From Saccharothrix sp. NRRL B-16348 (lineage in GTDB: Bacteria; Actinomycetota; Actinomycetes; Mycobacteriales; Pseudonocardiaceae), in contig NZ_LGED01000046.1 in assembly GCF_001280085.1 (NCBI RefSeq), positions 107,004 through 171,003 of the forward strand: a stretch of 64,000 nt of DNA, written 5' to 3'. Under the pieces are notes generated by a model that saw only the letters and a program-made list of their open reading frames with translations, did no database searches and was not told the origin of the DNA. The position numbers and the translations under genes were made by a program. Within the stretch, counting starts at the first letter, position 1. The number at the start of each line of letters is the position of its first letter. Shown in pieces: positions 21,268 to 31,545 of the stretch.

Positions 21268-22236
21268 ATGCGCGCGATCACCATTCGTGAACCCGGCGGA
21301 CCGGACGTGCTGGCCTGGACGGAGGTTCGGGACCCCGAACCGGGCCCCGGCGAGGTGCTCCTGACCGTGGCCGCGACCGCCGTGAACCGCGCCGACCTGC
21401 TGCAACGCCAAGGCCACTACCCACCGCCGAAGGGCACCTCCGAGTCACCCGGTCTGGAGTGCTCGGGCACGGTCGCGGCGCTCGGCGACGGCGTCACCGG
21501 CTGGCAGGTCGGCGACGAGGTGTGCGCCCTGCTCGCCGGCGGCGGCTACGCGGAACAGGTCGTCGTCCCAGCCGCCCAACTCCTGCCCGTGCCGGACGGC
21601 GTCGACCTGGTCACCGCGGCATCCCTGCCCGAGGTCGCGTGCACGGTGTGGTCCAACGTCGTGATGGTCGCCGGCCTCCGGAGCGGCGAGACGTTCCTCG
21701 TGCACGGCGGCGCGGGCGGCATCGGCACGCACGCGATCCAGGTCGCCAAGGCCCTCGGCGCCCGCGTCGCCGTCACCGCGGGCTCCGCGGAACGGCTCCA
21801 GCGCTGCGCCGACCTGGGCGCGGACATCCTGGTCAACTACCGCGAACAGGACTTCGTCACCGAGGTCGGCCACGCGGACGTCGTGCTGGACAACATGGGC
21901 GCCGCCTACCTGGACCGCAACGTCGACGTGCTCGCACCCGACGGCCGCCTGGTGATCATCGGCCTGCAAGGCGGCGTGAAGGCCGAGCTGAACATCGCCA
22001 AACTGCTGTCCAAACGCGCCAGCATCACCGCCACCGGCCTGCGCTTCCGACCTGTCGAAGGACCGAACAGCAAGGGCCGCGTCGTCGCCGAAGTGCGCGA
22101 ACACCTATGGCCACTGATCGCATCCGGCCACGTCAAACCAATCGTCCACGACGTACTGCCAATCGAACAAGCCGCCGACGCCCACCACCAACTGGAGAAC
22201 GGCGACGTCTTCGGCAAACTGATCCTCAAGCTCTGA
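21268..22236 (+). CDS. NAD(P)H quinone oxidoreductase (zinc-independent MDR family, PIG3-like)
   Basis: A 322-residue medium-chain dehydrogenase/reductase. The N-terminal catalytic domain has NRADLLQRQGHYPPP and GLECSGTVAALG; the Rossmann domain has VHGGAGGIGTHAIQVAKALG (AxxGxxG-type NADPH loop) and the C-terminal quinone-pocket part LRFRPVEGPNSKGRVVAEV. The zinc ligands of alcohol dehydrogenases are absent, as expected for PIG3-type quinone reductases. It would reduce quinones or enones with NADPH. It corresponds by position to Rv3777 of mycobacteria. The gene is followed by a large inverted-repeat element that probably ends its transcript. Confidence 0.88.
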   Translation: MRAITIREPGGPDVLAWTEVRDPEPGPGEVLLTVAATAVNRADLLQRQGHYPPPKGTSESPGLECSGTVAALGDGVTGWQVGDEVCALLAGGGYAEQVVVPAAQLLPVPDGVDLVTAASLPEVACTVWSNVVMVAGLRSGETFLVHGGAGGIGTHAIQVAKALGARVAVTAGSAERLQRCADLGADILVNYREQDFVTEVGHADVVLDNMGAAYLDRNVDVLAPDGRLVIIGLQGGVKAELNIAKLLSKRASITATGLRFRPVEGPNSKGRVVAEVREHLWPLIASGHVKPIVHDVLPIEQAADAHHQLENGDVFGKLILKL

Positions 22237-22276
22237 CAACCCCGTTCACCACCACGCCCTTCCCCACCAAAAGGGA

Positions 22277-22506
22277 GGGCTTCGTGTCATCCCGCCGACC
22301 TGGCTTTGCCCTACCGCGCGTGTCAAGGGGGCTGTGGGTCCAATACCCGCGGCTTCCACTGATGACCGCCCCCTTGACGCGGGTGGTAGCCCGGAGGGAG
22401 GTCGGTGGGATGACACGAAACCCGCACCACAACGGACCCGGCGCTTAACCACCAAACCCGGCGTCATCCTGCTGATCTGCCCGTCCGGCGAGGACTCTTT
22501 TATTCT
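22277..22506. repeat. Inverted-repeat element, copy A (147 bp palindromic core plus right outer arm)
   Basis: The core 22277-22423 is an imperfect palindrome whose ends both read GGGYTTCGTGTCATCCCRCC toward the centre; the arms also share a CCCTACC...GTCAAGGGGGC block. On the right it is followed by an outer arm (GTCATCCTGCTGATCTGCCC, then CCGTCCGGCGAGGAC) and a T-rich tract (TCTTTTATTCTTT). The same core and arm occur at 29128-29672. It lies between convergent genes and can act as a terminator for both, but its size and repetition suggest a dispersed element. Confidence 0.8.
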
Positions 22507-22551
22507 TTGGCTTGACGCTCTTACCTCAAGCTCTTACGCCAAGCCCTTACT

Positions 22552-23217
22552 TCACTCCAACGCCATCGCCGTCGCCAAAAACGTCCGCGGCGTAGTCCGA
22601 AACCGCAGGGCGAACTCCTCCGCCCACCTCACCAGCACGGTCTGCTCCCCAGGCCGTTCAGCGTCGTCCACCAACACCGCCGCCCCCGGCGCCAACACCC
22701 CGCGCAACACCGGCAACGCCGGATACCGCGCATCACCCAACAACGGCCCGTCCACCAACAACAAATCCACCAACCCGTACCGCTCCACAAACGCCGACAC
22801 CTCGTCGTGCACCAACTGCGGGTGGTACCACTGCCCGTTCCCCAAAGCCGCCGGATGAGGCGTCAACGGCGCGTGCACCACCCGCGCCACATGCCCCAAC
22901 CCCTCCCGCCGCAACTGGCTCGCCACGAACGCCGCCGTGCGCTCGTCGTGCTCCACCGACAGCAGGTGCCCGAACCCGCGCCGCGCCAGCAACCGCGCCA
23001 GCACGACCGACGACGCGCCGCACCCGCACTCCACCAGCACCGTCCGCGACCCGAGCAGCACCTCGTCCACCACCGCCGCGAGCGCCGCGGGGCGCAGTTC
23101 GTGCGCCGTGTTGGGCAGGTACTCCGACATCAGGGGCGCCAGCCGGTGCAGTGCGGCGAGGTCGGCGAGCTCCCGTGACAGCAGGTCGTCCACCCAGCCC
23201 CCCGGTCTCCGCGCCAC
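22552..23217 (-). CDS. Putative class I SAM methyltransferase
   Basis: A 221-residue protein with a Rossmann-type methyltransferase layout: TVLVECGCGASSVVLARLLA (motif I, about residues 59-78), LLSVEHDERTAAFVASQL (motif post I), YGLVDLLLVDGPLLGD (motif II region) and VLAPGAAVLVDDAERP. The pattern is like O-methyltransferase family enzymes, though the substrate is unknown and the glycine loop ECGCGAS is slightly atypical. It starts with GTG five bases after the stop of the aminotransferase homologue upstream, so the two form an operon. Its 3' end faces the inverted-repeat element A. Confidence 0.65.
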   Translation of the reverse strand: MARRPGGWVDDLLSRELADLAALHRLAPLMSEYLPNTAHELRPAALAAVVDEVLLGSRTVLVECGCGASSVVLARLLARRGFGHLLSVEHDERTAAFVASQLRREGLGHVARVVHAPLTPHPAALGNGQWYHPQLVHDEVSAFVERYGLVDLLLVDGPLLGDARYPALPVLRGVLAPGAAVLVDDAERPGEQTVLVRWAEEFALRFRTTPRTFLATAMALE

Positions 23218-23222
23218 CGACC

Positions 23223-24422
23223 TCAGCCGAGCTCGGCGACCGCCCGCACGAGCTCGTCCACTTCCACCGCGTTGGTGTAGTGCGCCAGGCCGACGCGGAT
23301 CGCCCCGCCGACCTCACCGACGCCCAGCACCGAGAACACGCCGTGCTGCCCCGAGTCGGCGAACGCGCACACGCCCCGCTCGGACAGGTGCTCGACGCCG
23401 TCGGTCGCCTTCACGCCGGCCACCGTGAACGCCAGTGCCGGCACCCGGCGCATGGCGTCGCCGATCACCATGACGTGACGGAGCGATCGCAGTTCGTTGA
23501 TGAGATTAGCGAGAAGTCCGGCCTGGTACGCCTTCACCGACCCCAACGAGGTGAGCACGCGCTCGCGCCGGGGACCCACCGCGGCGTCGTCCAGACCGGC
23601 CAGGTACTCGACCGACGCGACCAGACCGGCCAGCAGCGGGTAGGCGTGCGGGCCCAGTTCCAAGCGTTCGGGACCCCGCGCGCCGGGCTCGACGGCGACC
23701 GACGGCAGCAGGTCGAGCATCGACGGGTCGCGGAACACCAGCGCGCCGACCGGCGGCCCGCCCCAGTTGTTCGCCGACACCGCCACCACGTCGGCGTCCA
23801 TCGCCGTGATGTCGAGCGGCACGAACGGCGCGGCGGAGGAGGCGTCCACCACGACCAGCGCGTCCGTGCGACGGGCGGCCTCGGCAATCTTGCGCAGGTC
23901 CGGGCGGGTGCCGACGGAGCCGGACGCGGCCGTCACGGCGACCAGCTTGCACTTGGGCGTGACCAGGTCGTCGTACTGCCAGGCGGGCAGCTCGCACGTC
24001 TCGATGTCGACCTCGGCCCACCGCACGACGCTGCCGGTGCGCTGCGCGGCCCGCTGCCACGGCGCGATGTTGCCGGGGTGGTCCAGCCGCGACACCACGA
24101 CCTCGTCGCCCAGGAACCAGCCCTCGGACAGCGCGTCGGCGAGCCGTTGCAGCAGCACGGCGGAGCTGGGGCCGAGCACGACGCCCGCCGGGTCGGCGCC
24201 GACGAGGTCGGCCACCGCGCGCCTGGCCGCGTCGACGATGGCCTCGGCGCGTTGTGAAGCGGGGAATATGCCACCCGGCCCGGAGACGGGTGCGCGCAGC
24301 GCGGTGGAGACGGCCGTGGCCACCTGTTCGGGTACTTGCATCCCCGCAGGAGCGTCCAGATGAACCCAGCCGTCGCCGAGCGCGGGGAACAGCCCACGGA
24401 CCCGGGCGACGTCGAACGCCAT
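23223..24422 (-). CDS. Cysteine desulfurase-like class V aminotransferase homologue lacking the PLP lysine
   Basis: A 399-residue protein of the class V aminotransferase family (cysteine desulfurase-like, position of mycobacterial Rv3778c). Fold motifs are present: HLDAPAGMQVP, GPSSAVLLQRLADAL, SRLDHPGNIAPW, and VVVDASSAAPF with the Asp that contacts the pyridine nitrogen (about residue 193). Where active enzymes carry the Schiff-base lysine in a SxHK motif, the sequence reads SANNWGGPPVG, with Asn at about residue 219. The DNA reads unambiguously as AAC AAC. It may bind PLP non-covalently, use another residue, or have a non-enzymatic role. The ATG at 24420-24422 is chosen because homology-like sequence begins there. 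It starts the operon with the methyltransferase at 22552. Confidence 0.75.
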   Translation of the reverse strand: MAFDVARVRGLFPALGDGWVHLDAPAGMQVPEQVATAVSTALRAPVSGPGGIFPASQRAEAIVDAARRAVADLVGADPAGVVLGPSSAVLLQRLADALSEGWFLGDEVVVSRLDHPGNIAPWQRAAQRTGSVVRWAEVDIETCELPAWQYDDLVTPKCKLVAVTAASGSVGTRPDLRKIAEAARRTDALVVVDASSAAPFVPLDITAMDADVVAVSANNWGGPPVGALVFRDPSMLDLLPSVAVEPGARGPERLELGPHAYPLLAGLVASVEYLAGLDDAAVGPRRERVLTSLGSVKAYQAGLLANLINELRSLRHVMVIGDAMRRVPALAFTVAGVKATDGVEHLSERGVCAFADSGQHGVFSVLGVGEVGGAIRVGLAHYTNAVEVDELVRAVAELG

Positions 24423-24535
24423 GCCGCACACCGTACGGAGGACGCCGGCACGAGCGACAGCAGGGGCCGCGGGTTTGCCACCCGATCTGTGACCCGGTTC
24501 GGCGTCCGCCACCCGATCGGGCCAGGATGGGAGGC

Positions 24536-25087
24536 ATGAGCGAGGCACCCCGAGAAGATCAGCTGGAGAACGAGCGGCACGTGGTCGTGGTCGGCCCGGA
24601 CGGCACGCCGGTGGGGACCGCACGGGTGCCGTCCGGCGACGACGCGGGCGGCCAGGACGTGGCCGACCTGGTCGAGCAGCCGGCGAAGGTCATGCGCATC
24701 GGCACGATGATCAAGCAGCTGCTGGAGGAGGTGCGCGCGGCTCCTCTGGACGAGGCCAGCCGCAACCGCCTCAAGGAGATCCACAAGCGGTCCATCGACG
24801 AGCTCGAGGACGGTTTGGCGCCGGAGCTGCGCGACGAGCTGGAGCGGCTTTCCCTGCCGTTCACCGAGGAGGGCACCCCGTCCGACGCGGAGCTGCGGAT
24901 CGCCCAGGCACAGCTCGTAGGCTGGCTGGAGGGTCTTTTTCACGGCATCCAGACGGCCTTGTTCGCCCAACAGATGGCAGCGCGCGTCCAGTTGGAGCAG
25001 ATGCGCGGCCGTGCCCTGCCCGCCGGGTCGGGTCACGCCGACCACGAGGGCGGTCCGCAGATCCGGGGCACTGGTCAGTACTTGTAA
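24536..25087 (+). CDS. bpa: Bacterial proteasome activator Bpa (PafE)
   Basis: A 183-residue protein matching Bpa/PafE (Rv3780), the ATP-independent ring activator that opens the 20S proteasome gate for unfolded or damaged proteins. The acidic N-terminus (EDQLENERHVVVVGPDG) precedes a helical core (AKVMRIGTMIKQLLEEVRAA and LERLSLPFTEEGTPSDAELR), an AQAQLVGWLEGLFHGIQTAL helix, and the C-terminal GQYL motif that inserts into the proteasome alpha ring. The ATG at 24536 follows GGGAGG. It is divergent from the aminotransferase homologue and leads into the galactan export genes. Proteasome subunits are not in the window. Confidence 0.93.
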   Translation: MSEAPREDQLENERHVVVVGPDGTPVGTARVPSGDDAGGQDVADLVEQPAKVMRIGTMIKQLLEEVRAAPLDEASRNRLKEIHKRSIDELEDGLAPELRDELERLSLPFTEEGTPSDAELRIAQAQLVGWLEGLFHGIQTALFAQQMAARVQLEQMRGRALPAGSGHADHEGGPQIRGTGQYL

Positions 25088-25180
25088 CGTTCCTGTGCGG
25101 CGTTGAGGTCGCGGGGCTGGACAACGGGCACCGCGCTGCCCGACCGTGTTCACCGCCACACCCGCGAGAGGAGCCGACAG

Positions 25181-26032
25181 GTGCTCGACAAAGTCCGGCA
25201 CAGCCAGATCGTCGACGAGGTGCGCAAGCGCGTGCGCGGCAAGATCTTGCGGGTCATCGACGAGGCTGTGCGGCCCTACCACCGCGAGCAGGCCGAGCGG
25301 ATCGCCAAGCTCCAGCACGAGGTGGAGGAGCTGCGGAGACAGGCGGACCGGGCGGTCGACGCGACCGTCCAGTACGAGATCCGGGCGCGCCGCGACCTGG
25401 TGTTCGCCGGCGAGCAGGAGGCGGCCAAGGAGAGCGCCCGGTTCGTGCGCAGGCACCTGCCGACCGCGCCGCACTTCGGCCACCCGCACGCCACGCTGGA
25501 GCACGCCCTCGGCCTGGTCTCGACCGAGGGCATGGCGCTGGAGTTCGGCGTCTACACCGGCTCCACCCTCAAGCTGATCGCCACCGCGTACGAGGGCCGG
25601 GACGTGTACGGCTTCGACTCGTTCGAGGGCCTGCCCGAGGACTGGCGCAACGGCTTCCCGGCCGGCCTGTTCGGCATGGACGGCCTGCCCGACGTGGACG
25701 GCGCGGAGCTGGTCGTCGGCTGGTTCGACGACACCCTGCCCGGCTTCCTCGACGAGCACCCCGGCCCGGTGTCGTTCCTGCACGTCGACTGCGACCTGTA
25801 CTCGTCCACCAAGACCGTGCTGGAGCTGGTCGGCCCCCGGCTGGTGCCCGGCACGGTGATCGTCTTCGACGAGTACTTCAACTACCCGGGGTGGCAGGAC
25901 CACGAGCACAAGGCCTGGTCGGAGTACGTCGACCTCACCGGCATCGAGTTCGACTACTGCGGGTACACGTACGATCACGAACAGGTGATCATGAAGGTAA
26001 CCGGGGTGCCGGAGGCCTCGCAGCAGGGGTGA
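25181..26032 (+). CDS. TylF/MycF-type SAM-dependent O-methyltransferase with N-terminal coiled coil
   Basis: A 283-residue protein. The first 75 residues are charged and helical (HREQAERIAKLQHEVEELRR), likely a coiled coil. The rest is a macrocin O-methyltransferase-like domain: GMALEFGVYTGSTLKLIA (SAM motif I), GFDSFEGLPEDWRNG, VSFLHVDCDLYSSTKTVLEL and VIVFDEYFNYPGWQDHEHKA, with the metal-binding Asp and Glu typical of TylF/MycF sugar methyltransferases. Located directly before wzm/wzt/glfT1, it may methylate a sugar of the exported glycan, for example capping or modifying galactan; this is inferred from context. The GTG at 25181 has GAGAGGAG at correct spacing. Confidence 0.8.
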   Translation: MLDKVRHSQIVDEVRKRVRGKILRVIDEAVRPYHREQAERIAKLQHEVEELRRQADRAVDATVQYEIRARRDLVFAGEQEAAKESARFVRRHLPTAPHFGHPHATLEHALGLVSTEGMALEFGVYTGSTLKLIATAYEGRDVYGFDSFEGLPEDWRNGFPAGLFGMDGLPDVDGAELVVGWFDDTLPGFLDEHPGPVSFLHVDCDLYSSTKTVLELVGPRLVPGTVIVFDEYFNYPGWQDHEHKAWSEYVDLTGIEFDYCGYTYDHEQVIMKVTGVPEASQQG

Positions 26033-26091
26033 CCGCACCGTGACAGCCCGGCGACAGGGCCGCCACCCCGTCGCCGGTAGTCTCCTTACTC

Positions 26092-27021
26092 GTGCAACCC
26101 ACGAGTACGGTCGAGCGACCACCCGCTCCCCTGGCACCCAACTCGCGCACCTTCGCGCGCGCGTTCGGCGACGTGCGCGACGCCTGGCGGCAGCGGGAGC
26201 TGTGGGGCCACCTGGGGTGGCAGGACATCAAGCAGCGATACCGCCGGTCGGTCATCGGGCCGCTGTGGATCACCATCTCCATGGGCACGACGGCGCTCGC
26301 GCTCGGCCTGCTCTACTCCCAGCTGTTCAACCAGGAGTTGGGCACGTTCCTGCCGTACGTCACGGCCGGGTTCATCATCTGGCACTTCGTGCTGGGTGTG
26401 GTGACCGAGGGCACCGAGGTCTTCATCGCCAACGAGGGCCTGATCAAGCACCTGCCCGCGCCCATAACGGTGCACGTGCTGCGCATGGTGTGGCGGCAGA
26501 CGCTGTTCCTCTTCCACAACCTGGTCGTCTACCTGGTCGTCGTCGCGATCTTCTTCCCGACGCTGTCCAACGAGTACCGGATGTACGAGGGCGACCCGAT
26601 CCTGCAGCCCGGCCTGTCGTGGGGGGTGCTGATGACGATCCCCGCGCTCGCCCTCGTCGTGGTCAACGCGGTGTGGGTGGCGCTGCTGTTCGGCATCATC
26701 AGCACCCGCTTCCGCGACATCCCCCCGGTGATCAGCAGCTTCATCAACCTGATCTTCTTCATGACGCCGATCGTGTGGCACGTCGGCGTGCTCAACAAGG
26801 TCACCGGCAGCGAAAACAGCGGTGACAACGGCGACTGGCGCATGCTGATCGCCGAGCTGAACCCCATCTACCACTACGTGGAGATCGTCCGCGCCCCCAT
26901 GCTCGGTCACGTGCAGGACTGGCACCACTGGGTGGTCGTCGGCGCGTTCACCGTCGTGGGCTGGGGACTGGCGCTGATCGCGATGCGGAACTACCGTGCC
27001 CGCGTCTCCTACTGGGTCTGA
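26092..27021 (+). CDS. wzm: Galactan/O-antigen ABC exporter permease (Wzm)
   Basis: A 309-residue ABC-2 type permease with six membrane spans. The N-terminal cytoplasmic segment contains HLGWQDIKQRYRRSVIGPLW, the amphipathic gate-helix motif of Wzm proteins. It pairs with the ATPase 19 bp downstream and is the counterpart of Rv3783 in mycobacteria, which with Rv3781 exports lipid-linked galactan across the membrane. The start is taken as the GTG at 26092; a TAGTCT box lies about 8 nt upstream. It is in the same direction as the methyltransferase (59 bp gap). Confidence 0.88.
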   Translation: MQPTSTVERPPAPLAPNSRTFARAFGDVRDAWRQRELWGHLGWQDIKQRYRRSVIGPLWITISMGTTALALGLLYSQLFNQELGTFLPYVTAGFIIWHFVLGVVTEGTEVFIANEGLIKHLPAPITVHVLRMVWRQTLFLFHNLVVYLVVVAIFFPTLSNEYRMYEGDPILQPGLSWGVLMTIPALALVVVNAVWVALLFGIISTRFRDIPPVISSFINLIFFMTPIVWHVGVLNKVTGSENSGDNGDWRMLIAELNPIYHYVEIVRAPMLGHVQDWHHWVVVGAFTVVGWGLALIAMRNYRARVSYWV

Positions 27022-27040
27022 GTGAGGCCGCAAACACATC

Positions 27041-27856
27041 ATGGTCAGCATCGACGTCTGGAACGCCTCGGTCGACTTCCCGATCTTCGACGCCAAGTCG
27101 AGGTCGCTGAAGAAGCTCGCGCTGGGCAAGGTCGGCGGCAAGATCGGCTCCGAGGGCCGTGTCCCGATCATCGAAGCCCTGCACGACATCAACATCTCGC
27201 TGCGCCACGGTGACCGGGTCGGCCTCGTCGGCCACAACGGCGCCGGCAAGTCCACGCTGCTGAGACTGCTCGCGGGCATCTACGAGCCCACGCGGGGCAG
27301 CTCGCGCGTCGTCGGCAAGGTCGCGCCCGTGTTCGACCTCGGGGTCGGCATGGACCCGGAGATCTCCGGGTACGAGAACATCATGATCCGCGGCCTGTTC
27401 CTCGGGATGAGCCGCAAGGAGATGGAGAAGCGGGTCGACGACATCACCGAGTTCACCGAACTCGGCGACTACCTCCAGATGCCGCTGCGCACCTACTCGA
27501 CGGGTATGCGGGTGCGGCTGGCGCTGGGCATCGTGACGTCGATCGACCCGGAGATCCTGATCCTGGACGAGGGCATCGGCGCGGTCGACGCGGCGTTCAT
27601 GGCCAAGGCCCGGGACCGGATGAACGACCTGGTCAAGCGGTCGGGCATCCTGGTGTTCGCGAACCACTCCGACGACTTCCTCGCCGAGTTCTGCACCACC
27701 GCGATCTGGATGGACGAGGGCAAGGTCAAGATGCAGGGTGGGCTGCGCGAGGTGCTCACCACCTACAAGGGGCGCGACCCCTTCGAGAACATGACCTCGG
27801 AGACGTTGGAGCGGCTCGGTCAACCGAGGGTGCTGAGCGGGAATGGTGGCGAGTAG
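27041..27856 (+). CDS. wzt: Galactan/O-antigen ABC exporter ATPase (Wzt)
   Basis: A 271-residue ABC ATPase of the polysaccharide export class. Visible are Walker A GHNGAGKST, the signature YSTGMRVRLALG (the degenerate signature normal for Wzt), Walker B ILILDEGIGAVD, and the switch His in FANHSDDF. The C-terminal carbohydrate-binding domain of some Wzt proteins is absent, so export is probably coupled to lipid-linked glycan without terminal recognition, as in Rv3781. The TAG stop is immediately followed by the GTG of glfT1, indicating a single operon. Confidence 0.9.
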   Translation: MVSIDVWNASVDFPIFDAKSRSLKKLALGKVGGKIGSEGRVPIIEALHDINISLRHGDRVGLVGHNGAGKSTLLRLLAGIYEPTRGSSRVVGKVAPVFDLGVGMDPEISGYENIMIRGLFLGMSRKEMEKRVDDITEFTELGDYLQMPLRTYSTGMRVRLALGIVTSIDPEILILDEGIGAVDAAFMAKARDRMNDLVKRSGILVFANHSDDFLAEFCTTAIWMDEGKVKMQGGLREVLTTYKGRDPFENMTSETLERLGQPRVLSGNGGE

Positions 27857-28762
27857 GTGAGCGTCGTGGGCGCACTGCCGCAGGGCTCCGTCGTCGGGGT
27901 CGTGGTGACCCGGCACCGGCGCGAGCTGCTGGCCGACTCGTTGAAGGTGCTGGCGTCGCAGACCCGGCCGCTCGACCACCTCGTGGTCGTCGACAACGGG
28001 CCGGACCAGCCGGTGGACGACCTGGTCGCCCAGTGCCCGATCCCGACCACCTACCTGGCGTCGCACCGCAACCTCGGCGGCGCGGGCGGGTTCGCGCTCG
28101 GCATGCTGCACGCGCTGTCGTTGGGCGCGGACTGGCTGTGGCTGGCCGACGACGACGGGCGGCCCGCGGACGAGACGGTGCTCGCCGTGCTGCTGGAGGA
28201 GGCGCAACGGCGCAAGCTGGCCGCGATCTCGCCGGTGGTGGCGAACATCGAGCGCCCGGAGAAGCTCGCGTTCCCGCTGCGACGCGGGTTGACGTGGAAG
28301 CGGAACGCGGCCGAGCTGGGCACCGACTTCCTGCCGGGCATCGCGTCGCTGTTCAACGGCGCCCTGTTCAAGGCGTCCACCGTGGACGTCATCGGCGTGC
28401 CGGACTACCGGCTGTTCTTCCGCGGCGACGAGGTGGAGATCCACCGCCGGCTGGTCCGCACCGGCCTGCCGTTCGGCACGTCCCTGAAGGTCACCTACCT
28501 GCACCCGGACGGTTCGGACGAGTTCAAGCCGATGCTCGGCGGCCGGTTCCACGCGCAGGACCCGGAGAACGCGATCAAGCGCTACTACACCTACCGCAAC
28601 CGCGGTTACTTGCTGTCCCAGCCGGGGATGCGCAAGCTGGGGCTGCTGGAGGCATTCCGGTTCGGCCTGTACTTCATCGGCGTGCGTCGTGACCCGAAGG
28701 CGTTCCTCGAGTGGTTGAAGCTCGTGCGTCTGGGCCAACGGGAACGCTTTTTCCGGAAGTGA
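27857..28762 (+). CDS. glfT1: Galactofuranosyltransferase GlfT1
   Basis: A 301-residue GT2 family enzyme corresponding to Rv3782 (GlfT1), which adds the first two galactofuranose residues to the decaprenyl-PP-GlcNAc-Rha linker. The GT-A fold motifs are VVTRHRRELLADSLKVLASQ, SHRNLGGAGGFALGM, the metal-binding DDD in WLADDDGRP, and GDEVEIHRRL, where the base is expected. The length fits. The start is GTG directly after the wzt stop; UDP-Galf would come from Glf at 33510. It is the last gene of the export operon before the small gene at 28891. Confidence 0.88.
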   Translation: MSVVGALPQGSVVGVVVTRHRRELLADSLKVLASQTRPLDHLVVVDNGPDQPVDDLVAQCPIPTTYLASHRNLGGAGGFALGMLHALSLGADWLWLADDDGRPADETVLAVLLEEAQRRKLAAISPVVANIERPEKLAFPLRRGLTWKRNAAELGTDFLPGIASLFNGALFKASTVDVIGVPDYRLFFRGDEVEIHRRLVRTGLPFGTSLKVTYLHPDGSDEFKPMLGGRFHAQDPENAIKRYYTYRNRGYLLSQPGMRKLGLLEAFRFGLYFIGVRRDPKAFLEWLKLVRLGQRERFFRK

Positions 28763-28781
28763 GCCGGGGGCTGGCCGGCCT

Positions 28782-28826
28782 GGGTTGAGCTTGGGCTCAG
28801 GTTGGGTTCGGCTTGGGTTCAGCTTG
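28782..28826. repeat. G/T-rich degenerate short repeats
   Basis: About 45 bp with recurring GAGCTTGGG, GGCTTGGG and CAGCTTG units just after glfT1. Its strand bias differs from the flanks. No function was recognised. Confidence 0.3.
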
Positions 28827-28890
28827 ACGCGGAATCGCTGACGGCGAACCCGTCTTGCCTGGTCAGGCTCGTGCTGGTGGGCTGTGCGGC

Positions 28891-29103
28891 ATGACTTCTG
28901 AAGCGCGTAAGACGGCACTGGTCCTGCACCTGGCCGCGAACTCGAACCCGATTACGATCAAAGTCTCCCCGGAGACCGCCGTCGATCTCGGATCCCGTTT
29001 GATCCAGGTTGTGCGGAATGGTCACACCCAGGCCATCCAGACCATTGACGGTAACGAGTTCGTGGTGAACTTCAGCCACGTCGTGGCTGCCCATTTCGAG
29101 TAG
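28891..29103 (+). CDS. Small conserved-looking protein of unknown function (70 aa)
   Basis: A 70-residue protein beginning MTSEARKTALVLHLAANSNP and ending SHVVAAHFE. The composition (Val/Ile-rich, SPETAVDLGSRLIQVV helix, IDGNEFVVNFSHV strand) looks like a real folded protein rather than a chance frame, and local GC is lower than in neighbours. The ATG at 28891 is preceded by GGTGGG at a long spacing. It lies between glfT1 and inverted-repeat element B on the same strand as the export operon. No family was recognised with confidence. Confidence 0.6.
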   Translation: MTSEARKTALVLHLAANSNPITIKVSPETAVDLGSRLIQVVRNGHTQAIQTIDGNEFVVNFSHVVAAHFE

Positions 29104-29127
29104 GCGGATGTACTGTCGCTTGCCGAA

Positions 29128-29672
29128 GGAAAAGATTAAAAGCTTAAAAGCATGTCCTCGCCGGACGGGCAGATCAGCAGGATGACCCCCACTGCCTGGT
29201 TCTGTGCCGGGTCCGTCGTTGGTGCGGGTTTCGTGTCATCCCACCGACCTCCCTCCGGGCTACCACACGTATCAAGGGGGCAGCCAACAGTCGAAGCCGC
29301 GGGTATTGGACACACAGCCCCCTTGACACGCGCGGTAGGGCAAAGCCAGGTCGGCGGGATGACACGAAGCCCTCCCTCTGGGGAGGAAGGGCAGTCGGCG
29401 GCCGCACCGCGCGGGTCGGGCCCGGCACCGCGCCCGACCGGCGACCCCCGACCCACTCCACTGGCAGGTCTTTCCTCAAAAGCAGGGCTTCGTGTCATCC
29501 CGCCGACCTGGCGCAGCCCTACCGCGCGTGTCAAGGGGGGCGCCTGTCCACTCGGTGGGATGACACGAAACCCGGACCAACAACGGACCCGGACACATGA
29601 CCAGGGCAGTGGGGGTCATCCTGCTGATCTGCCCGTCCGGCGAGGACATGCTTTTAAGCTTTAATCTTTTCC
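29128..29672. repeat. 545 bp composite inverted-repeat element, copy B
   Basis: Terminal inverted arms of about 120 bp (about 29128-29250 and 29553-29672) begin GGAAAAGATTAAA at both ends, include the AT-rich GCTTAAAAGCATG and a GC-rich block (GACGGGCAGATCAGCAGGAT), and run into the ends of internal palindromes. Inside are a 147 bp palindromic core (29226-29372, the same as copy A but reversed) and a shorter 89 bp version (29485-29573). It sits between convergent genes, 24 bp from one stop and 17 bp from the other. There is no transposase. The T-rich ends after GC-rich stems fit bidirectional termination. Confidence 0.85.
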
Positions 29673-29688
29673 GCTTTGCCACCGCTTG

Positions 29689-31545
29689 TCAGCGGTTCTC
29701 GAAAGCCTTCCGCCACTGCTCGGCCGAAGTAAGTTCAGGCAGGGCGTCGCGGTACTGCCGACGCAGCCTCGGCCATTCCTTGCCCAACCGCCGGTAGTTG
29801 CGGACCGCCCGAGCCATCAGCGAACGGAACTGGTCGGGGTCACGCTTGTAGAAGGCGACGCCGGTGCCGTCCGCCGTGGACACCGTGGCGCTGTCCAGGT
29901 TGCCGAGCAGGAACCAACGGGCGTTCAGGGCAGGCACGTTGAGCTGCGGCCGGTCGCCGGCGGAGGCCTGTGGTGGGCGCAGGTTGTGCAGGACGGACTT
30001 GGCCGCGCGCACCGCGATCGTCGCCTTGCCCTTCGACGGGCGCAGCAGCGCTTCCGCGCGCACCATGTCGAACGTCGGCGGCGGGAATTCGCGGGCCGAG
30101 TCCAGGCGTCGGGCGTCGCTGTACTCCTCGCGCATCGCGCGCACCATCGGCAACGCCGTGCGCAGCGAGTCGAACAAGCCGGCGGGCCCGTCCAGGAAGT
30201 CCTCGATCGCCTTCTGCTGCAACGCCACCGTGGAGTACTCCATCGACAGCAGGTGCCGCAGCGACAGCTTCAACCCGTGCTTCACGATCCCCGACCGCAC
30301 GTCGTACGGGCTGTGCAGCGCGGCCAAGACCAGGCGGTTCCGGGTGTGGAAGTAGGCCTGCCAGTCGGTCGAGTCGTTCTTGTCCGTCCACGGCATGTGC
30401 CACACCGCCGAACCCGGCAACGACACCGTGGGGTAGCCGTGCTCCAACGCCCGCAACGAGTACTCGGCGTCGTCCCACTTGATGAACAGCGGCAGCGGGT
30501 AGCCGGTCCGCTCCACCACCTCGCGCGGGAACAGGCACATCCACCAGCCGTTGTAGGTGGCGTCGACCCGGGGGTGCAGCTCGGGCGTCTCGCGCAGCGA
30601 CGACACGGCGAAGTCGTGGTCGGTGACCGCGCCCGGCGCGGCCCGCCAGAAGCACGTGCCGAGGTCGACGATCTCGGCGGTGCTGTGGATCCTGGTCCTG
30701 GCCTGCAGGTTCAGCATGTGGCTGCCGACGATGACCGGCGACGCCGCCGCCCGCGCGAACGCGTTGGACCGCAGCACGGCCTCCGGCTCCAGCCGGATGT
30801 CGTCGTCCATGAGCATGATCTGGTCGGCGTCGGTGTGCTCGACCGCCTCGAACATGCCCCTGGTGAAGCCGCCGGCACCACCCAGGTTGTCCTGCTCGAT
30901 GACCTCCAGCCGGCCGCCGAGCCCGGCCTCGGCCTCCGCGAAACCGGCCACCGAGCGCACCTTCACCGCGCCCTGGTCGGCCACGAACACGTTGCTCACG
31001 ACATCCAGCACAGCGGGGTCGCTGCCCAGCGCCCGCAACGCCTCCGCCGCGTCGTGCGGGCGCATGGTGGTGATGCTGACCGCGACCTTCTTCACCGGCA
31101 ACGGCGACCGCACGGCCCACTCGGCGTCCTGGATCTCCAGCGGCGCCTCGTGCGTGAACGCGTCGAACCAGATCAGCCCGCCGTCCTCGAACGGCCGCAG
31201 CGACACCGGGAACTCCAGCGACGTCCACTCCGCCGCGTCCCGGACGAACGAGCCCTCCAGGTGCACGACGTCGCCGCTCGGCTTGGACCGGTACACGTCG
31301 ACCCGGCCCGAGCCGCGCACGCGCATCCGCAGCACGACCTCGTCGACGACCGTCCACCGCTTCCAGTAGCTGGCCGGGAACGCGTTGAAGTACGTCGCGA
31401 ACGACACCTTGGCGTGCTCGGGCACGGTCAGCCCGCGCCGGGAGTCGACCTGGCAGTGCACGTTCTCCGGCTCGTCCAGGTACATCGGCCGGACGTCGAG
31501 CGGGTCGTCGTCCCTCGGCAGGATGATCCGGTGCACTGCGTCCAC
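29689..31545 (-). CDS. GlfT2-like galactofuranosyltransferase, diverged paralogue
   Basis: A 618-residue GT2 enzyme with the full GlfT2 layout: an N-terminal beta-sandwich (VSFATYFNAFPASYWKRW), a GT-A domain with DDD at about residues 247-249 (MLMDDDIRLEP), the acceptor-site WDD at about 357-359 (FIKWDDAEYSL), a catalytic-region His (AVWHMPW), and a C-terminal helical domain. It differs from the neighbouring copy at the start of the GT-A domain (VSITTMRPHDA in place of VICTFNRVEDC). It probably transfers galactofuranose with altered linkage, acceptor or length preference. Third gene of the glf-glfT2 operon, 85 bp after the previous gene. The stop is 17 bp from repeat element B. Confidence 0.8.
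   Translation of the reverse strand: MDAVHRIILPRDDDPLDVRPMYLDEPENVHCQVDSRRGLTVPEHAKVSFATYFNAFPASYWKRWTVVDEVVLRMRVRGSGRVDVYRSKPSGDVVHLEGSFVRDAAEWTSLEFPVSLRPFEDGGLIWFDAFTHEAPLEIQDAEWAVRSPLPVKKVAVSITTMRPHDAAEALRALGSDPAVLDVVSNVFVADQGAVKVRSVAGFAEAEAGLGGRLEVIEQDNLGGAGGFTRGMFEAVEHTDADQIMLMDDDIRLEPEAVLRSNAFARAAASPVIVGSHMLNLQARTRIHSTAEIVDLGTCFWRAAPGAVTDHDFAVSSLRETPELHPRVDATYNGWWMCLFPREVVERTGYPLPLFIKWDDAEYSLRALEHGYPTVSLPGSAVWHMPWTDKNDSTDWQAYFHTRNRLVLAALHSPYDVRSGIVKHGLKLSLRHLLSMEYSTVALQQKAIEDFLDGPAGLFDSLRTALPMVRAMREEYSDARRLDSAREFPPPTFDMVRAEALLRPSKGKATIAVRAAKSVLHNLRPPQASAGDRPQLNVPALNARWFLLGNLDSATVSTADGTGVAFYKRDPDQFRSLMARAVRNYRRLGKEWPRLRRQYRDALPELTSAEQWRKAFENR

What the first reader, a model, noticed from the sequence alone, without database searches (positions are those of the whole stretch)
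29128..29672. Composite element B: 120 bp terminal inverted repeats enclosing two palindromes
Both ends start GGAAAAGATTAAA and match for about 120 bp. Inside lie a reversed copy of the element A core and a shortened 89 bp version. AT-rich ends next to GC-rich stems are striking in DNA of this GC content. Six related half-sites exist in the window in total. Nested insertion of palindromic units, or bidirectional termination that protects convergent operons (galactan genes on both sides), are possible explanations.
Basis: seen in the sequence. Interest (0 to 1): 0.75.

Follow-up and report, generated by a model that had tools for sequence, protein, structure and literature searches.

The report
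Dispersed hairpin repeats, homogenised within genomes
This stretch is one copy of a large family of folded DNA/RNA repeats scattered between genes of Saccharothrix and related soil bacteria; many copies keep their places between close species, but within one genome the copies come to resemble each other.

Summary
29128-29672 has near-perfect inverted ends (94% over 120 bp; folds at -438.7 kcal/mol) around two hairpin cores. It is an outward-facing dimer of a ~260-nt structured unit (5' hairpin, cross-shaped core, spacer, near-invariant tail hairpin, T-rich end); element A (22256-22510) is a monomer. The genome has 82 half-sites and 42 tails. A covariance model finds the unit in 23 of 25 genus genomes and 118 of 200 family genomes; in a 394-genome class sample only one hit lies outside the family. 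No Rfam match. Compensatory changes support 30 of 54 pairs; G.U far exceeds A.C on the tail strand; the tail repeats the core's 5' arm and changes with it. Junctions are often shared between close species, but sequences are not: 66 of 66 copies with an ortholog are nearer to a copy elsewhere in their own genome. Monomer and dimer alternate at four junctions. RAYT transposase is absent from every genus genome with more than 24 hits. Best reading: a REPIN/ERIC-like dispersed repeat kept uniform by gene conversion or in-place turnover, mostly at gene 3' ends. A canonical bidirectional terminator is not supported.

The parts
29128..29672 (.). Element B: outward-facing dimer of the repeat unit (tails at both ends, 5' ends inward)
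29128..29153 (-). T-rich end of left unit (read on the minus strand)
29154..29185 (-). near-invariant tail of left unit: copy of the core 5' arm (GTCATCC) plus GTCC-GGCGA-GGAC hairpin
29229..29369 (-). core hairpin of left unit, 141 bp, with two opposing mini-hairpins; half-sites 29229-29248 and 29350-29369
29369..29392 (-). small 5' hairpin of left unit
29393..29459 (.). GC-rich linker between the two 5' ends, itself able to fold
29460..29487 (+). 5' end of right unit
29488..29570 (+). core of right unit, shortened to 83 bp (tip and 3' inner arm missing); half-sites 29488-29507 and 29551-29570
29616..29647 (+). near-invariant tail of right unit
29648..29672 (+). T-rich end of right unit
22256..22280 (+). 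Element A: small 5' hairpin
22280..22420 (+). Element A: core hairpin, 141 bp (monomer)
22464..22495 (+). Element A: near-invariant tail
22496..22510 (+). Element A: T-rich end
29689..31545 (-). GlfT2 (galactofuranosyltransferase 2), convergent with the element's left-hand genes
28891..29103 (+). 70-codon ORF ending 24 bp before element B; no Pfam match; a similar ORF is visible by eye beside glfT2 in relatives

Best explanation
Element B is one member, in dimer form, of a family of dispersed, non-coding, strand-specific structured repeats in Pseudonocardiaceae. Each unit folds on its tail strand into a long cross-shaped hairpin; its tail carries a second copy of the hairpin's 5' arm, so the 3' arm can pair with either one (two mutually exclusive helices), followed by a short GGCGA hairpin and a T-rich end. 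SHOWN: the family, its fold by covariation, its distribution, shared junctions between close species, and sequence likeness inside each genome that overrides shared junctions. INFERRED: copies are kept alike by gene conversion, or by in-place turnover, acting on the whole unit or dimer, much as discussed for REP/REPIN sequences but without a RAYT. They persist mainly at gene 3' ends, where insertion spares promoters and where the RNA fold can form a boundary in read-through transcripts (as reported for ERIC). Copies inside integrative conjugative elements (AICEs) are a plausible route between genomes.
For: Family: 82 half-sites and 42 tails in G000; model R1 at E<=1e-5 in 23 of 25 genus genomes and 118 of 200 family genomes / 34 of 46 genera (capped and strictly filtered, so a lower bound); 3 of 394 class-sample genomes at E<=1e-4, two of them in the family. 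Fold: 30 sequences, 95.7% of cells paired, 30 of 54 pairs and 108 cells with changes on both sides; shuffled means 12.6 and 24.1, slid versions at most 11 and 19. 101 copies from 78 loci of five genomes: 15 pairs / 96 cells, shuffled 5.0 / 28.7. Strand: G.U 352 against A.C 10 leaving out the outermost pair, 354 against 65 with it. Switch: tail and 3' arm can pair in 98.6% of cells; over 29 distinct arm/tail combinations 6.86 of 8 pairs, shuffled 6.16, largest of 5000 shuffles 6.69. Homogenisation: 66 of 66 copies with an ortholog are closer to an own-genome paralog; G000-G004 ortholog distance 0.157 (22 pairs), non-ortholog 0.156 (732 pairs); genome-label changes on the copy tree 9, shuffled mean 59.5. 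Inheritance of place: loci whose flanks match a G000 element-bearing junction: G004 15 of 19, G020 7 of 10, G002 5 of 8, G017 4 of 18; monomer orientation the same in 21 of 21 pairs free of contig-end copies (about 11 junctions, pairs not independent). Own subfamilies: ten G016 copies 99.2% identical, nine G005 copies 96.3%, with mostly unlike 5' flanks (0.56 and 0.44). Position: monomers at 15 convergent, 13 tandem, 1 divergent junctions; background 24/101/42. PF01797 absent from all genus genomes with more than 24 R1 hits.
Against: No transcript data. Gene conversion itself was not observed; independent insertion at the same junctions is only made unlikely by the numbers, and G017 shares few junctions (4 of 18). 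A weak ortholog signal remains: on average 0.327 of other-genome copies are closer than the ortholog, 0.427 expected with no signal (single-ortholog cases 0.411 against 0.5); tail similarity 0.376 against 0.281. Nearest-paralog counts favour paralogs by number. Four of the five genomes in that test are drafts, so assembly could blend copies; the single-contig G002 shows the same in its 8 of 8 rows. G.U over A.C fits ssDNA as well as RNA. Orientation to genes is loose: the 5'-side gene's 3' end faces the unit in 24 of 29, the tail-side gene's in 19 of 29. G023 has 24 R1 hits and one PF01797 gene. Shuffles do not remove relatedness; A2 and A3 are fitted to the model.
Confidence: 0.6

Rival explanations
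1. Host bidirectional terminators: the elements end and insulate convergent transcripts, and positions are kept by selection.
For: Enriched at convergent junctions (15 of 29 monomers; 24 of 167 background pairs); at glfT2 several other genomes have a short GC hairpin, by eye, where G000 and G002 have the element; very strong fold.
Against: No intrinsic-terminator match at the tails of A or B; the tail stem is 4 bp; 21 of 24 genomes read have no element at the A junction; no R1 hit in two genus members; 10 of 21 dimers lie between tandem and 3 between divergent genes.
Confidence: 0.2
2. A replication-related ssDNA module of AICEs (single-strand-origin-like) that has been copied into the chromosome.
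For: 10 of 24 windows upstream of the high-scoring RepSA type hold a strong unit on the rep strand (a weak eleventh hit in L277), 0 of 22 windows chosen from the lower-scoring RepSA hits; L144 has RepSA (E 2.8e-139) and an integrase; G.T/G.U bias also fits ssDNA.
Against: Six AICE windows (L285-L290) keep the neighbouring conserved module without the unit, so the unit is optional there; one locus (L154) has, by eye, a Rep-like gene on the opposite strand; no replichore strand bias in G016 or G005; sso function cannot be tested here.
Confidence: 0.12
3. A classical MITE: B is a 545-bp transposon with 120-bp terminal inverted repeats moved by an unseen transposase.
For: Inverted termini; dimers of ~540-610 bp in G002, G004, G014, G017 and G020; junctions vary between genomes; both arms of two G004 dimers (L188, L191) have a zero-distance paralog.
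Against: Monomers are at least as common (29 against 21 junction entries); the two arms of one dimer differ by 0.229 on average in seven G004 dimers, more than random G004 pairs (0.162); no target duplication seen by eye; no match of the window element in the plasmid collection.
Confidence: 0.12
4. Artefact of short-read assembly of repeats (copies blended within each draft genome).
For: Many G000 contigs end inside copies; an S. luteola copy holds an N-run (L049); 13 of 20 monomer/dimer differences involve a copy near a contig end.
Against: Single-contig G002 shows the same nearest-paralog result in 8 of 8 rows; single-contig G016 and G005 hold near-identical copies at many places.
Confidence: 0.05

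Closest known systems
REPINs / BIMEs with RAYT (PMC8049555 and PMC3733652, passages seen)
   Same: Many intergenic palindromic units; inverted dimers able to form one hairpin, head-head dimers having tails outside as in B; long vertical persistence of the population.
   Different: Unit ~260 nt instead of 20-40 bp; no GTAG/CGTC end tag recognised; no PF01797 gene in G000 or in any genus genome with more than 24 hits; covarying cross-shaped fold and tail/arm competition.
ERIC / IRU (PMC2229807, passages seen)
   Same: Intergenic, transcribed with neighbouring genes according to that review, orientation-dependent effect on upstream mRNA, RNA fold.
   Different: 127 bp and enterobacterial; sequences not compared here; no dimer form or within-genome homogenisation in the passages seen.
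Caulobacter CIR elements (PMC2229807, passages seen)
   Same: Two long inverted-repeat arms joined by a linker, phylogenetically conserved RNA structure.
   Different: Carry a GANTC motif, another phylum; sequences not compared here.
Single-strand origins / sti of Streptomyces rolling-circle plasmids (recalled; search listing only)
   Same: Orientation-dependent non-coding hairpins on rolling-circle elements (recalled).
   Different: No sequence match established; dispersed chromosomal copies not expected.

Membership tests
REPIN/BIME (RAYT-linked REP) | RAYT / Y1_Tnp gene in the genome | tested here: not met
   PF01797: 0 in G000 and in the other 11 genus genomes with more than 24 R1 hits; 5 of 25 genus genomes positive (G012, G014, G018, G019, G023, with 3-24 R1 hits)
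REPIN/BIME (RAYT-linked REP) | 20-40 bp palindrome with GTAG or CGTC end tag | tested here: not met
   unit ~260 nt ending in a T-rich tract; definition from PMC3733652 abstract start and passages
REPIN/BIME (RAYT-linked REP) | inverted dimers forming one hairpin | tested here: met
MITE | terminal inverted repeats | tested here: met
   dimer form only; monomers lack the left copy
MITE | target-site duplication | tested here: inconclusive
   filled and empty junctions differ too much next to the element; judged by eye
MITE | autonomous element sharing the ends | tested here: inconclusive
   no plasmid match with the window element; most AICE copies adjoin a separate conserved module
Intrinsic transcription terminator | GC stem of >=5 pairs directly followed by a T-tract at the element's ends | tested here: not met
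   within A and B only an internal match, 29201-29228
Known Rfam RNA family | covariance-model match at gathering score | tested here: not met
   best non-tRNA hits E 0.19-0.4, far below the gathering score
AICE single-strand origin | supports second-strand synthesis | not testable with these tools
   only location and orientation examined

The most novel reading that the evidence does not exclude
A transposase-independent repeat population in bacteria: a two-state RNA or ssDNA element whose copies hold chromosomal addresses across related species while their sequence, and their monomer/dimer form, is continually overwritten genome-wide (concerted evolution), with AICEs seeding new genomes with a new master sequence.
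Probability: 0.25. Interest if true: 0.82.

Novelty: new variant of a known kind. Interest (0 to 1): 0.65.

Why it matters
Whether bacterial palindromic repeats persist by transposition, by gene conversion or by host benefit is an old question. This family shows shared addresses with homogenised sequence and no RAYT in the genomes with most copies, so the gene-conversion idea becomes directly testable. It also offers a structured RNA/ssDNA family, absent from Rfam, across a family of antibiotic-producing bacteria, with a conserved arm/tail competition that suggests a two-state structure, and it accounts for many contig breaks in this draft genome.

Tried and rejected
Rfam search of 21500-30500 and of ten loci: no family. 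RAYT link: rejected. Promoter/terminator scan: no support. Plasmid and phage collections: the window element was searched in plasmids only, no match; an AICE copy with its neighbouring module (L146) matched six Streptomyces plasmids over ~55 bp of that module and no phage. Two of those plasmid contexts were read and not pursued. 'Long form' as ancestor: I first took the AICE copies for a ~480-nt long form and the dispersed copies for truncations; one search showed that the second domain also occurs without the unit, so I dropped that. CRISPR-like neighbours (L020, L021, L024, by eye): not constant, dropped. Replication-strand bias: none. End-of-unit ortholog signal: weak. Mini-hairpin loops as DNA-type C(GNA)G triloops: loops vary too much. 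One search oriented some loci wrongly; replaced. One search stopped with an error after its first line; repeated. On re-check 6 of the 13 'non-edge' monomer/dimer pairs involved copies cut by contig ends; the clean count is 7 pairs at 4 junctions, and the clean orientation count is 21 of 21 (24 of 25; the odd pair is a G000 copy at a contig end). I lowered the main confidence from 0.62 to 0.60 for this.

One search used 102 copies with both tail and arm found. One search left out contig-edge elements, elements >700 bp from a called gene, and all but one monomer and one dimer per ortholog group; its background comes from the G000 loci and the window. One search used 78 of the loci fetched. One search dropped 12 of 63 rows with gaps, and its G005/G016 rows are partly out of register. 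The 24 RepSA windows are all hits above 430 bits; the ten units in them were known from earlier element searches; windows L278 and L282 begin inside the neighbouring module, so the unit's place was not held there. Three of the 22 control windows are shorter than 9 kb. One search used 10 and 9 of the best-scoring loci of G016 and G005; the G016 3' flanks are alike (0.93) because a second unit follows. Gene calls come from my own codon-usage caller, not an annotation.

Full report
OBSERVATION. The described structure is present. Both ends of 29128-29672 are inverted copies (94% over 120 bp), the six half-sites are there with 0.03 expected by chance, and the strand folds 28 standard deviations better than shuffles. 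The shortened core is 83 bp between half-site borders, not 89. Element A (22256-22510) is one unit; B is two units pointing outwards.

FAMILY. In the same genome (G000, 278 contigs) there are 82 half-sites at up to 3 mismatches against 3 for the reversed control pattern, and 42 tails, 38 exact. Exact half-site matches in named genomes fell in 31 stretches of S. luteola, S. carnea and Saccharothrix sp. S26 (records close to the window's own genome may be left out there). Saccharothrix belongs to Pseudonocardiaceae. Contig lengths equate G004, G017 and G020 with those three. Lining copies up gives one oriented unit: small 5' hairpin, half-site, a stem interrupted by two opposing mini-hairpins, half-site, ~45-nt spacer, a 32-nt near-invariant tail, T-rich end. 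Model R1 finds it in 23 of 25 genus genomes (none at E<=1e-5 in G007 and G024), in 118 of 200 family genomes and in 3 of 394 genomes of a class sample, one of them outside the family. G016 and G005 carry their own subfamilies with the same layout; the hits listed there reduce to 71 and 66 places more than 250 bp apart. No Rfam family matches.

FOLD AND STRAND. On 30 diverse sequences 30 of 54 pairs show changes on both sides (shuffled mean 12.6; slid versions 5-11); on 101 copies from five genomes 15 pairs (shuffled 5.0). Leaving out the outermost pair, 352 cells are G.U and 10 are A.C on the tail strand; with it, 354 and 65. Two positions are G.U in 88 and 89 of 100 distinct rows. This marks the tail strand as the folding strand, as RNA or ssDNA. 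The tail repeats the core's 5' arm: tail and 3' arm can pair in 98.6% of cells, and the tail follows the arm when the arm changes (GTCATCC, CTCATCC, GCCATCC, ACCATCT), though not in every row. Relatedness can inflate such shuffles. I read this as two mutually exclusive helices; a shared protein-binding motif would also fit.

PLACE. Of 21 glfT2 junctions read, G000 and G002 have the B dimer and G016 has its own subfamily copy; several others have a short GC hairpin there by eye. At the A junction 3 of 24 genomes read have an element (G000, G004, G020). One per ortholog group, monomers lie at 15 convergent, 13 tandem (9 sense, 4 antisense) and 1 divergent junction; dimers at 8, 10 and 3; background pairs 24, 101 and 42. 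Promoter avoidance explains most of this; a sense preference is suggestive only.

CONCERTED EVOLUTION. By their flanks, 15 of 19 G004 loci, 7 of 10 G020, 5 of 8 G002 and 4 of 18 G017 loci share a junction with a G000 copy; monomer orientation agrees in 21 of 21 pairs free of contig-end copies. Yet all 66 copies with an ortholog are closer to a paralog in their own genome. G000-G004 orthologs differ as much as random cross-genome pairs (0.157 against 0.156), although matched flanks are 81-97% identical. The copy tree needs 9 genome-label changes against 59.5 shuffled. Form also changes: A is a monomer here and a dimer in G004; 7 clean pairs at 4 junctions are mixed. A weak ortholog signal remains. 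Ten G016 copies are 99.2% identical with mostly unlike 5' flanks. This pattern fits gene conversion or in-place turnover; no tool here can watch it happen.

VEHICLE. PF01797 (RAYT) is absent from all 12 genus genomes with more than 24 R1 hits; G023, with 24, has one. Ten of 24 windows upstream of the high-scoring RepSA type hold a strong unit on the rep strand (L277 a weak one), against 0 of 22 windows of the other type. In 8 of the 10 it lies beside a conserved module that also exists without the unit in L285-L290. L144 is supported as an AICE by RepSA and integrase. The gene list of L146 suggests the order unit - GntR-like - TraB-like - RepSA-like - Xis-like - Int-like; these labels are by eye.

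LITERATURE. REPIN and REP-dimer papers (PMC8049555, PMC3733652) and a small-repeat review (PMC2229807) were seen as passages, AICE papers PMC3218068 and PMC8584621 likewise. Searches for Saccharothrix palindromes, Pseudonocardiaceae structured RNA and Amycolatopsis dispersed repeats listed no title that names this family; that is limited to the held open-access library and to the rows shown.

VERDICT. A real, widespread, structured repeat family; a new variant of the REPIN/ERIC kind of dispersed repeat. The terminator reading is possible but untested and not canonical.

Noticed in passing
G000 contig ends, e.g. L083/L088, L081/L102, L099/L103, L104/L109: Many contigs of this draft end inside a copy; relatives show which contig ends face the same junction.
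   Followed up: partly
L285-L290, L146, L148 and others: CGCCTTGATGAAG...GAAACTCTGAACAC: A conserved hairpin-rich module upstream of RepSA in AICEs, found with and without the repeat unit; ~55 bp of it also match six Streptomyces plasmids.
   Followed up: partly
L020, L021, L024 (G005, G040, G015): Copies of the unit lie next to CRISPR-like repeat arrays (seen by eye).
   Followed up: no
L330-L347 (G016): Several copies face, tail to tail, a second subfamily (ends like CTGCCGCGCGGCGAGCGC): a dimer arrangement opposite to element B (by eye).
   Followed up: no
G462 contig C5:955-1172 (L239): The only class-sample hit outside the family, near a contig end; not identified further.
   Followed up: partly
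L023 and L290: Long direct repeats built on CGTTGGAAC-like words beside an AICE copy (L023) and beside the AICE module (L290), by eye.
   Followed up: no
window 28891-29103: 70-codon ORF next to element B, no Pfam family; a similar ORF is visible by eye beside glfT2 in several relatives.
   Followed up: partly
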